Source of the DNA: Acheta domesticus | Lineage: Eukaryota > Arthropoda > Insecta > Orthoptera > Gryllidae | Reading direction: 5' to 3' | DNA: 64,000 nucleotides | Assembly: GCA_031308135.1 (NCBI GenBank) | Contig: JAHLJT010000631.1 | Span: forward strand, 228,432,636 to 228,496,635 | Part shown: piece after piece, positions 35,629 through 38,439 of the stretch | Position numbering within the stretch: position 1 is the first letter of the stretch | Layout of the letters: each line of letters starts with the position of its first letter | Notes under the pieces: generated by a model | The model's database searches: none | What the model was told of the DNA's origin: nothing | What the model saw: only the letters and a program-made list of their open reading frames with translations | Translations under genes and position numbers: made by a program

Positions 35629-35703
35629 TTTATAATATTTTGGTTTTAAGGAAAAAGAATATGGATTGCCATATTTATCCATTAAATAAACAAAACGATT
35701 CAT
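35629..35703 (-). CDS. Virus-like hypothetical protein, N-terminal fragment cut by gap
   Basis: Starts with ATG at 35,703 and is open up to the gap, giving only about 25 residues (MNRFVYLMDKYGNPYSFSLK at the N-terminus). It is too short to recognise. It is divergent from the gene at 35,781, with 77 bp between the two starts. A GGGTTAATAA stretch lies directly upstream of its start, resembling GGGTTAAAATAA upstream of the gene at 36,122. Confidence 0.45.
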
Positions 35704-35780
35704 TTATTAACCCTAAATTAATCTCTTGATAAAAATTAAGCAAACTTATGGATTTACTAGTAAATTGTTATAAATAAACG

Positions 35781-36041
35781 ATGAATATGCCTGGAAAAAC
35801 TCCAATAGAAAAAATTGTTTCTTTTTCGACAAAACCCGAAAAAACTTTAACACCTAGAAGTTATGAATCTATTAAAAACACTTTTAGGACTCCAATTCCA
35901 TATAATTGTCCTGATGTTTCAACTCATTTATCTGACTGTCCAGTTTGTTCCAATTTATATGGAAAAGAAAAATTGTTATATATTTTTTTAGGAGCCATGA
36001 TTGTAATTGTATTTTTGGTAATTAAAAATCAACTCAATTAA
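35781..36041 (+). CDS. Virus-like small tail-anchored membrane protein, 86 aa
   Basis: ATG preceded by TTATAAATAAACG; intact frame to TAA. Residues 1-60 are polar with a PxxCP-type Cys/Pro motif (DCPVCSNLYGKEK). A single hydrophobic segment (YIFLGAMIVIVFLVI) near the C-terminus predicts a tail-anchored membrane protein. Small virion-membrane proteins of this shape are common in large DNA viruses, but no specific family is recognised. The stop is followed within about 10 bp by a perfect 11-bp hairpin, and the next gene starts 80 bp downstream. Confidence 0.65.
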   Translation: MNMPGKTPIEKIVSFSTKPEKTLTPRSYESIKNTFRTPIPYNCPDVSTHLSDCPVCSNLYGKEKLLYIFLGAMIVIVFLVIKNQLN

Positions 36042-36048
36042 ATTGTAA

Positions 36049-36073
36049 TTTTTATGGTATTTTACCATAAAAA
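36049..36073. terminator. Perfect palindromic hairpin after the 86-aa gene
   Basis: TTTTTATGGTA and its exact reverse complement TACCATAAAAA around a TTT loop, 7 bp after the stop codon. In Mimivirus and some other giant viruses, transcript 3' ends map to such intergenic hairpins (the 'hairpin rule'). The termination role here is inference. Confidence 0.65.
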
Positions 36074-36121
36074 TTTATAAGGGTTAAAATAATAACATAA
36101 CTTTATAATAAATAATTTAAA

Positions 36122-37621
36122 ATGGATGATATTTTTAATTTTGAATTACCACTTCATGACCGTATAAAAGCAATTGTAAAATTTGGTGATGAAACAACTA
36201 TTAAACGATTAATTTCTTTATTAACCATAAGCAATAGCAGTATTATTAAAAATACTCTTTATCATTTATGTAAATTTTGTTCTGATATTTCATGTGTTTT
36301 AAGGCTTGAAATTGCTTTAGCCCTTATTGATTATGAAAAAGAAGAAGCAGAACCTTCTGAAATTATAGGGTTTGAAGCTTTAGATTATGTGTGTTTTTCA
36401 ATGCACAAATCTAAAGAAATTCCATTCAATTGTAAATTAAACGCTTATGTGATTCTAAATTCTGGACTTCCAAATTTAAAACGAGTGTATTTATATCTTT
36501 ATGATATGTTAACAGACTCGTCTACAACGTTTCAGTTTAAATATAAAACTGTTAAATTTTTAGTCTCGGAAAGACAGGAAAATAATATTACATCACTTAT
36601 GGTAGAATATTGTATATCTGTATTATTATCTAATTTTCATGGCCCTTCTTATTCAAAAATAAATAATGAAACATACGAAGATTATTTACAATTTTTTATT
36701 TTAACTTGCCAACTAAGTTTATCATATGTTCCAAAATTAAAGTGTTCGTGTATAGCGGAAAATAAATTGTTAGAGATATGCAAAAATCAAAATTTGTCTG
36801 TTAACATTAGAGCAGATGCTTCTGATATGCTGTTATCATATGGCTCTTCAGAAAATAAAGAAGAAGCAAAAATAATTTTAGATTCATTATCGTTTGACAA
36901 TCATACAATTAAAACAATATACAATAACAAAGAAAACGTTCATACAAGCACAATCAATAAAACAGCTATAAATACTATAACTATCATTATTGAAGATGTT
37001 AATAAAATGTTTCAAAGAGAAGATATTTGGATTCTTACTGAAAATATATTACAAAATTTAATTGAAAAATACCCCCCTAATTTTAAACCGTTAATAGATA
37101 ATGCAACAAAGGCATATAACCGTATTATGTATTTAGATAATGCTTTATATACAGCTTATAATTTTAATTTAAAAAATATTATGAACTATGTATGGACATT
37201 TATTAACAATTCAAATAAAGTTTCTAACAAGGTTGAATTGGAAAAAAGATTAATAGAAGAAATGAGAGAAATGAATAATACTTGTTCTTCTGGTTATTTA
37301 ACTCGATTTGCAAATATTTTTTCTGGTTTTTTAGAAAATGGTGGCGTTTTTATTGGCTGGGATGAACAAATTTTAAGTATATTTTATGGTAAAGTAAATT
37401 TAGCCATAACTTCTTCTTTAAATAAAGATTTAATTTTAGAAAATTTAATTGAAACAGAAAATGAAAATGATAAACAAGAATTTCAAAAACTTTTACGAAC
37501 TATTCTTCCAGATATAATCGAATCGATTAAAATAGAATTTAAAGATCATATATCAGAATCTGATATAGACTTATATATAAGAAGAGCTTTAAGCGTTTTT
37601 GAAGGATATGAATTTATATAA
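36122..37621 (+). CDS. Virus-like protein of unknown function, 499 aa, helical repeat type
   Basis: Intact 499-codon frame, ATG preceded by TTATAATAAATAATTTAAA. The protein is rich in Asn/Ile/Lys/Glu, in keeping with the A/T-rich segment, and looks all-alpha: successive amphipathic helices (for example LRLEIALALIDYEKEEAEP and VNIRADASDMLLSYGSSENK) recall HEAT/ARM-like helical repeats. No catalytic motif, signal peptide or membrane segment is seen. I do not recognise a named family; a large-DNA-virus structural or scaffolding role is possible but unproven. It is the only long intact frame in the window without transposon hallmarks, so the segment is either recently acquired or not host DNA. 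It converges on the next gene with a hairpin between them. Confidence 0.7.
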   Translation: MDDIFNFELPLHDRIKAIVKFGDETTIKRLISLLTISNSSIIKNTLYHLCKFCSDISCVLRLEIALALIDYEKEEAEPSEIIGFEALDYVCFSMHKSKEIPFNCKLNAYVILNSGLPNLKRVYLYLYDMLTDSSTTFQFKYKTVKFLVSERQENNITSLMVEYCISVLLSNFHGPSYSKINNETYEDYLQFFILTCQLSLSYVPKLKCSCIAENKLLEICKNQNLSVNIRADASDMLLSYGSSENKEEAKIILDSLSFDNHTIKTIYNNKENVHTSTINKTAINTITIIIEDVNKMFQREDIWILTENILQNLIEKYPPNFKPLIDNATKAYNRIMYLDNALYTAYNFNLKNIMNYVWTFINNSNKVSNKVELEKRLIEEMREMNNTCSSGYLTRFANIFSGFLENGGVFIGWDEQILSIFYGKVNLAITSSLNKDLILENLIETENENDKQEFQKLLRTILPDIIESIKIEFKDHISESDIDLYIRRALSVFEGYEFI

Positions 37622-37634
37622 TTTTTATTAAAAA

Positions 37635-37663
37635 TTTTTTAATGGAATTATTCCATTAAAAAA
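37635..37663. terminator. Perfect 13-bp palindromic hairpin between convergent virus-like genes
   Basis: TTTTTTAATGGAA, loop TTA, TTCCATTAAAAAA. It lies between the stop of the plus-strand gene (37,621) and the stop of the minus-strand gene (37,668), so it could serve both. Same type as the hairpin at 36,049. Confidence 0.7.
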
Positions 37664-37667
37664 TAAA

Positions 37668-37953
37668 TTAAACGTCTCGTTTTTCATCATTTATTGTTTC
37701 CATCGCTTTAATTAATTCCTCTTCATTTATTTTTGATTTACTAATTGCAACTTTACACAAATTAAATACAACACCTTTTTGAATTTGGATGACAAGTCAA
37801 ATCTAAAAGAACAGATACTTCATTATATAAATTTTTTTGCCGTTTAAGTGCACTTCTTGCATTTATATCTTGAGCCCTTATGGTATAGTATGGATAATGA
37901 TCATCATTACGTTTAAGAAGAATAAAACGTTCTCGTTTTAAATTATCAAACAC
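37668..37953 (-). pseudogene. Virus-like gene 3' fragment, frameshifted and cut at the junction
   Basis: The minus-strand frame enters from the block junction at about 37,955 without an ATG, so its 5' part is missing. It reads RFILLKRNDDHYPYYTIRAQ, then further sequence ending LLDLTCHPNSK. A single-base frameshift near 37,785 leads to a second open frame with LCKVAISKSKINEEELIKAM ending at 37,668. The pattern 'YYxIRxQ...A...L......PN' is reminiscent of the C-terminal domain (DUF3627-like) of KilA-N/MSV199-type proteins found in insect and amoeba large DNA viruses. This is a tentative resemblance from memory of the pattern. Confidence 0.5.
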
Positions 37954-38439
37954 TGTCCACTAATTAAATGTTTTAAGTAGCTTTCCTAACTTTCGATCTC
38001 TCATACAAAGTTCAAAAGGCACTTTTTCGTAGACTAAGCTTCTTCGCGACACTATTGAATGAAACTTCGCCGGCATTCGCCTGGGCTGTCAATCACTGGC
38101 GGCCCAGCGCTAGTCACAACCACGAACTGACGGTCTAGTGCTACTGGTTAATATGCTGGCGATCACGAGGCGGACGATCAAGAAGGTAACGCATTCCGTT
38201 TCCGTGGTATTGATGCGTATTTTCTCCTCCACGTACGGCGGTCTTTTCCTTCCTCCCTCTCCGACGGGCCTGCCGCGCGTCACAACTCCTTCTTAATTGG
38301 TAGAAAGTGCCGCAATCTGACGACAGGATCGCTTCTGCGAATGCTGTAGCACTCGCTCCTGCGGAATTTGAGGCGTGCGCTTCGCACATGTGTTGCGTGG
38401 GTGTGCATGCGACGAGATAACTGACAATCGTCACAATAT

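What the first reader, a model, noticed from the sequence alone, without database searches (positions are those of the whole stretch)
35629..37955. Giant-virus-like gene cluster embedded in an insect intron
The sequence shows an A/T-rich, intron-less, tightly packed gene cluster (a divergent fragment, an 86-aa tail-anchored protein, a 499-aa helical protein and a convergent fragment) with gaps of about 50-80 bp, surrounded by tens of kb of transposon-filled DNA. The two central frames are fully intact. The organisation, codon bias and intergenic hairpins resemble Nucleocytoviricota. If integrated, it is a young endogenous giant-virus element; if not, a chimeric contig that still reveals a virus associated with the animal.
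Basis: partly seen in the sequence, partly recalled or inferred. Interest (0 to 1): 0.88.

Follow-up and report, generated by a model that had tools for sequence, protein, structure and literature searches.

The report
Cricket iridovirus DNA on contig end
A 2.3-kb stretch in what is very likely a house-cricket genome assembly is DNA of a known cricket virus (Liz-CrIV, a close relative of insect iridescent virus 6), likely stuck to the end of a cricket contig by a sequencing or assembly error rather than a virus built into the genome, so it is ordinary.

Summary
In detail: 35629-37944 is a 24% GC, intron-less, about 91% coding segment with intact 86-aa and 499-aa frames. It is not an unknown giant virus. 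The 499-aa protein is 100% identical to a Liz-CrIV protein and 97% to IIV-6 467R. The neighbours are a patatin-like phospholipase start and a DUF3627 protein end.

The genome is very likely Acheta domesticus: one scaffold is 303,995,810 bp, the published longest scaffold. That paper reports 6246 metagenome scaffolds, about 83% IIV6-like.

Integration is poorly supported. The segment starts right after a 1000-N run and meets host DNA at 37941-37944 with a 4-bp overlap. A second copy of this host region, in the same window, runs through the site without virus (19636-19639). The same virus DNA recurs at two other chromosome places, without substitutions in the stretches compared. At the fully visible one it again ends at a 1000-N run, and the next contig begins with the unoccupied site. 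None of the 4 virus-bearing places found shows host-virus-host in one contig; two have unseen far ends.

Best explanation: a chimeric contig end from an infected cricket (0.85). Integration is not excluded, because reads were not available.

The parts
34629..35628 (.). run of exactly 1000 N, read as a scaffold gap; contig A ends before it, contig B starts after it
   Evidence: only N run in the window; another run of exactly 1000 beside the virus DNA on C1565. That it is an assembly gap is inference; gap sizes elsewhere were not sampled.
35629..35703 (-). first 25 residues of the virus's patatin-like phospholipase gene, cut by the gap
   Evidence: full 286-aa frame on C2357, PF01734 E 2.4e-25
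35781..36041 (+). 86-aa protein, likely tail-anchored; relative of IIV6-T1_456
   Evidence: P0031 83% id (IIV6-T1_456), P0030 97% id; membrane anchor is read from the sequence, not computed
36047..36075 (+). hairpin (13-bp stem) just after the 86-aa gene; role as a transcript end is a guess
   Evidence: z -1.5, 14 of 200 shuffles as stable
36122..37621 (+). 499-aa protein, ortholog of IIV-6 467R, identical to a Liz-CrIV protein; predicted all-helical repeat solenoid
   Evidence: P0001, 97%; A0A5B8RL44, 499 aa, 100%; model pLDDT 81.4, pTM 0.57; weak ARM/HEAT-type matches, best E 0.033
37634..37664 (+). hairpin (14-bp stem) between the two convergent genes
   Evidence: z -3.5, 0 of 200 shuffles as stable
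37668..37944 (-). C-terminal part of a DUF3627 protein (KilA-N plus DUF3627 in relatives); frame broken in the window
   Evidence: (PF12299, 6.1e-21)
37941..37944 (.). virus-host joint with a 4-bp overlap (AATT) shared by virus and host
37945..50042 (+). host DNA, second copy of the region 19636-31539; contig B continues
19636..31539 (+). first copy of the same host region in contig A; 19636-19639 is the unoccupied site
31540..34628 (-). retroelement-like DNA (A-rich start at 31540) present only in the first copy; contig A ends inside it
   Evidence: frames 31578-34179 (element type read by eye)

Best explanation
The segment 35629-37944 is DNA of the circulating cricket iridovirus Liz-CrIV/IIV-6, and it was likely joined to cricket DNA during library preparation or assembly, not integrated into the chromosome. 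Shown: the virus identity, the sharp joint with a 4-bp overlap, the adjoining 1000-N run, the unoccupied site in the other host copy, and the same virus DNA at other places of the assembly. Inferred: the animal is Acheta domesticus and was full of virus; a chimeric long read linked virus to host; the assembler extended a host contig into virus; and the scaffolder put this contig next to its allelic partner, so the virus looks embedded between two copies of one host region. In the virus itself the genes are ordinary iridovirus genes: a patatin-like lipase, a small protein predicted to sit in membranes, 467R predicted to be a helical repeat scaffold, and a DUF3627 protein likely to bind DNA through a KilA-N part.
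For: Identity: 100% to Liz-CrIV A0A5B8RL44, 97% to IIV-6 467R, 86-aa 83% to IIV6-T1_456. Host: scaffold C5460 is 303,995,810 bp, the published longest A. domesticus scaffold; that assembly used PacBio CLR reads, Canu with corMinCoverage=0, then Chicago/Hi-C, and 6246 scaffolds were set aside as metagenome, about 83% IIV6-like (passages). Contig end: virus begins at the first base after the 1000-N run. Unoccupied site: 19636-31539 is repeated at 37941-50042, and copy 1 runs on without virus. Recurrence: C2357 carries 2316 bp with 0 substitutions and 2 one-base length differences, C1565 carries 1235 bp at 100%. At C1565 the virus also ends at a run of exactly 1000 N, and the contig beyond starts with a 98.3% copy of the roughly 350 host bases that precede the virus joint, then continues as host. 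Host-virus-host within one contig: 0 of the 4 virus-bearing places found (window, C2357, C1565, C5460).
Against: No reads or depth were available, so the chimera is inferred. Abundant free virus could also break the assembly inside a true integration, which would put virus at contig ends. Two of the four places (C2357 and C5460) carry long stretches that look viral by GC and frames (at least 18 kb and about 36 kb) and run into long N runs whose nature I cannot tell (gap or withheld), so their far ends are unseen; stretches this long are harder to explain by one chimeric read. The four places are a lower bound: only this segment, PF04451 and PF12299 were searched, and the tool scores only the best candidates. 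The 1.5 kb of host DNA next to the joint differs from copy 1 by 32-39 substitutions per 500 columns against 6-16 further on, which I do not explain. The assembly searched has 6511 scaffolds and 2.328 Gb, the published one 9961-9964 and 2.347 Gb, so it may be a later version. The search for a contig with the missing left flank joined to virus did not complete (9 tries).
Confidence: 0.85

Rival explanations
1. A recent germline integration of Liz-CrIV DNA on one of the two chromosome copies (a young endogenous viral element).
For: The window joins virus to host without N at 37941-37944; intact frames; the host region exists in two forms, one with and one without virus.
Against: Only one joint is seen; the virus ends at a 1000-N run here and at C1565; at C1565 the unoccupied site starts the very next contig; the places share DNA without substitution in the stretches compared, which needs several near-simultaneous insertions; the likely source assembly is full of IIV6-like scaffolds.
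Confidence: 0.08
2. Somatic integration of virus DNA in some cells of the infected animal, captured by single reads.
For: Heavy virus load is implied; the two joints resolved have 2- and 4-bp overlaps, as end-joining of broken DNA would give.
Against: In-vitro ligation or polymerase chimeras give the same picture; iridoviruses are not known to need integration (recalled).
Confidence: 0.06
3. An unknown giant virus or an old endogenous giant-virus island.
For: Low GC, dense coding and hairpins.
Against: 100% protein identity to Liz-CrIV and 97% to IIV-6; no substitutions between the copies compared.
Confidence: 0.01

Closest known systems
Liz-CrIV (lizard-cricket / cricket iridovirus)
   Same: 499-aa protein 100% identical over 499 residues (BFVD A0A5B8RL44); complete genomes reported from reared Gryllodes sigillatus (passages of PMC8670987)
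[quoted passage not shown]
   Same: 467R ortholog 97% identical; small neighbour protein 83% identical to IIV6-T1_456
   Different: A 4-residue length difference in 467R (499 against 503) and a divergent middle of the 86-aa protein
IIV6-like metagenome scaffolds of the A. domesticus assembly (PMC10136058)
   Same: Very likely the same animal and the same kind of virus; the authors set those scaffolds aside as metagenome
   Different: These pieces stayed inside chromosome scaffolds; the passages I saw do not mention virus left in chromosomes, and I did not read the whole paper
Endogenous viral elements of large DNA viruses in arthropods
   Same: Virus genes next to host repeats
   Different: No second joint seen, no divergence between copies, unoccupied sites beside it

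Membership tests
Iridovirus Liz-CrIV / IIV-6 | near-identical orthologous proteins | tested here: met
   499-aa: 100% to Liz-CrIV, 97% to IIV-6 467R; 86-aa: 83% to IIV6-T1_456
Iridovirus Liz-CrIV / IIV-6 | same gene order: patatin-like lipase <- / 86-aa -> / 467R -> / DUF3627 <- | tested here: inconclusive
   Same order in the window and the C2357 copy; the deposited virus genome itself was not readable here
Iridovirus Liz-CrIV / IIV-6 | NCLDV major capsid protein in the same virus | tested here: inconclusive
   PF04451 found twice in the genome, both on C5460, 231 bits (PDB match to a major capsid protein), but not linked to this segment and not compared with Liz-CrIV
Endogenous viral element | host DNA on both sides within one contig | tested here: not met
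   0 of 4 virus-bearing places found; two of them have unseen far ends
Endogenous viral element | two joints at one site, one on each side of the virus | tested here: not met
   one joint only at the window and at C1565; unoccupied site in copy 1 and at the start of the next contig at C1565. The search for the missing left flank did not complete
Endogenous viral element | divergence or decay relative to the free virus and between copies | tested here: not met
   0 substitutions in 2316 bp and in 1235 bp; 499-aa protein 100%. Frame breaks do not recur: 467R is whole in the window and broken on C2357, DUF3627 the other way round, as scattered read errors would give. A very young element would also pass as undiverged
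Endogenous viral element | reads crossing the joints at host depth | not testable with these tools
   no reads available
Allelic (haplotig) duplication in a scaffold | two collinear copies of one host region separated by a gap | tested here: met
   19636-31539 and 37941-50042 at about 94% and 97% over the two main pieces, N run 34629-35628 between them
Allelic (haplotig) duplication in a scaffold | copies are alleles and not a true tandem duplication | not testable with these tools
   read depth not available; allelism is inferred from the gap, the insertion present in one copy only and the assembly method

The most novel reading that the evidence does not exclude
Liz-CrIV DNA really enters cricket chromosomes by end-joining during covert infection, at several places, and some of it is heterozygous in the germ line: iridovirus integration caught in the act.
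Probability: 0.1. Interest if true: 0.75.

Novelty: already known. Interest (0 to 1): 0.15.

Why it matters
It matters mainly as a warning: virus DNA from an infected animal can stay in chromosome-scale scaffolds after decontamination, look like an endogenous giant virus, and be counted as one in automated surveys. It also points to a likely false duplication in this scaffold. If integration were real, it would be rare direct evidence of recent iridovirus endogenization in a farmed insect.

Tried and rejected
Rejected: unknown giant virus (protein identity). Rejected: bacterial or organelle origin (same). Rejected: a distant iridovirus relic on scaffold C3107 (64% DNA match); the 10,000 of its 10,335 bases that I read are G+C-rich, purine-rich low-complexity sequence in which I saw no virus gene by eye. 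Rejected: reading the KilA-N/DUF3627 genes on C1565 (39.97 Mb) and C5263 as this virus; they lie in another element.

Led nowhere: IMG/VR scans with the 499-aa and 86-aa proteins found no relative; with the alignment, one distant contig; with the DUF3627 piece, one contig. Pfam gave nothing above its cut-off for the 499-aa and 86-aa proteins. Paper search for 467R found nothing. Foldseek on solved structures gave only weak helical-repeat matches. Rfam and tRNA scans were empty.

Full report
What is there. After a run of exactly 1000 N (34629-35628) the window changes to 24% GC for 2316 bases and then returns to 39% GC. The stretch holds an 86-aa frame (35781-36041) and a 499-aa frame (36122-37621), both on the plus strand and intact. 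It also holds the start of a divergent gene (35629-35703) and the end of a convergent one (37668-37944). In 500 single-base shuffles the longest frame was 104 aa. Hairpins sit after both central genes; the one between the convergent genes is more stable than all 200 shuffles, the other only slightly better than most.

What the genes are. The 499-aa protein matches IIV-6 467R at 97% over its length (29 proteins listed from the 7995 candidates scored). The structure library of virus proteins returned a 499-residue Liz-CrIV protein at 100% identity as its best hit. The 86-aa protein matches IIV6-T1_456 at 83% and an unnamed sequence at 97% (12 proteins listed). The convergent fragment scores 74.8 bits against DUF3627. 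The divergent fragment is the start of a 286-aa patatin-like phospholipase that can be read in full on another scaffold. The AlphaFold model of the 499-aa protein is nearly all helical, mean pLDDT 81.4, pTM 0.57. Against solved structures it gives only weak matches, many to armadillo- and HEAT-type proteins (best E 0.033, none at 0.001 or better). Among virus proteins, besides the Liz-CrIV one, it matches IIV-3 061R, three Marseillevirus (LCMAC) proteins and one unnamed entry at 1e-5 or better. A repeat-scaffold role is therefore a prediction.

Which animal. The window lies on scaffold C392 of a 2.328-Gb assembly of 6511 scaffolds. Another scaffold of it, C5460, is 303,995,810 bp. The house cricket genome paper PMC10136058 gives 303,995,810 bp as its longest scaffold (passages read). 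I take the genome to be Acheta domesticus. The published totals differ a little (9961 or 9964 scaffolds, 2,346,604,983 bp), so this may be a later version. The paper describes PacBio CLR reads at 27x, Canu with corMinCoverage=0, Arrow, then Chicago and Hi-C scaffolding. It reports 6246 scaffolds removed as metagenome, about 83% of them similar to IIV6, and crickets from a farm without reported disease (passages). Covert and active cricket iridovirus infections in reared Gryllodes sigillatus are published (PMC8670987, passages).

Where the virus stops. The window and the C2357 copy agree up to window 37944 and then part: C2357 continues as virus, the window as host. The host side can be read from a second copy of the same host region in the window, 19636-31539 against 37941-50042, about 94% and 97% identical over the two main pieces and 86% over the first 788 columns. 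Four bases, AATT, are common to virus and host at the joint (19636-19639 and 37941-37944). Copy 1 runs through this site with no virus. At the far end copy 1 carries an insertion from 31540 on, by its frames a retroelement, which copy 2 lacks, and the contig ends inside it. The simplest reading is two allelic contigs set one after the other by the scaffolder, with the virus hanging off the free end of the second. Leaving out the first bases and a tandem array in the middle, the copies differ by 229 substitutions and 159 gap runs in the left part, and by 31 substitutions and 66 gap runs in the right part. The first 1.5 kb next to the joint is more divergent (32-39 substitutions per 500 columns) than the rest of the left part (6-16), which I do not explain.

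The same virus DNA elsewhere. A search of the whole assembly with the 2.3-kb segment gave 6 matches: the window itself; C2357 (2316 bp, 0 substitutions, 2 one-base length differences); C1565 (1235 bp, 100%); two 31-base inverted matches inside the first two; and one 64% match on C3107 that is low-complexity sequence. At C1565 the virus meets host at 96686852 and on its other side ends at a run of exactly 1000 N. The contig beyond that run starts with a 98.3% copy of the roughly 350 host bases that lie before the virus joint, and then continues as host. So the unoccupied site is again present in the same scaffold. The overlap at that joint is 2 bases. An NCLDV capsid gene (PF04451) was found twice, both on C5460, inside a 28-kb near-perfect palindrome (99.94%) with no N inside it; a structure-sequence search calls it a major capsid protein, but I did not compare it with Liz-CrIV. 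C2357 and C5460 carry stretches that look viral by GC and frames over at least 18 kb and about 36 kb and run into long N stretches on one side; I cannot tell whether these are gaps or withheld sequence. Of these 4 places none shows host, virus and host again in one contig. They are a lower bound, since only this segment, its protein, PF04451 and PF12299 were searched with an answer.

How it most likely arose. Shown: virus identity, contig-end position at the window and C1565 (if the 1000-N runs are gaps), unoccupied sites, and copies without substitutions. Inferred: the animal carried much virus; some long-read molecules were chimeras of virus and host; the assembler kept them and extended host contigs into virus; Hi-C scaffolding placed those contigs in chromosomes; and screening by whole scaffolds left pieces inside chromosomes. 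The long stretches on C2357 and C5460 would need further assembly of virus reads onto such a tip. I put this explanation at 0.85. A true heterozygous or somatic insertion needs similar contig breaks and several insertions without any divergence, so I put germline integration at 0.08 and somatic at 0.06. Reads were not available, and nine tries of the search for the missing left joint did not complete.

What was checked in print. Searches for iridovirus endogenization in insects and crickets (listings only, except passages of the two papers named above; one search listed 15 of 81 papers) returned no paper whose listed title or start of abstract describes Liz-CrIV or IIV-6 integrated in a cricket genome. 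These searches cover open PMC papers only.

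Noticed in passing
window 19636-31539 and 37941-50042: About 12 kb of host DNA occurs twice in the same orientation (about 94-97% over the main pieces), likely two alleles kept as a false tandem duplication by the assembly.
   Followed up: partly
G000:C1565:39960949-39973065 (L034, L032, L035): A roughly 12-kb AT-rich element with inverted terminal repeats of about 1.5 kb (95.8%), a 500-aa frame that looks to me like a protein-primed DNA polymerase (recalled; no Pfam hit) and a KilA-N/DUF3627 gene. 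A better candidate for a genuine integrated virus-like element than the one in the finding.
   Followed up: partly
G000:C5263:168132-168341 (L033): A second, broken relative of that element (86% and 70% DNA matches) with KilA-N and DUF3627 pieces.
   Followed up: partly
G000:C5460:111789528-111817653: 28-kb near-perfect palindrome (99.94%) that carries an NCLDV capsid gene in both arms; it could be a hairpin long-read artefact, not proven.
   Followed up: partly
window 26462-26932 and 44759-45503: Tandem array (the frames repeat every 10 residues, so a unit of about 30 bp or a multiple), of different length in the two host copies; it gives long spurious frames.
   Followed up: no
G000:C3107 (10,335 bp; first 10,000 bases in L023): A G+C-rich, purine-rich low-complexity scaffold with long spurious frames; likely sequencing junk or satellite.
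   Followed up: no
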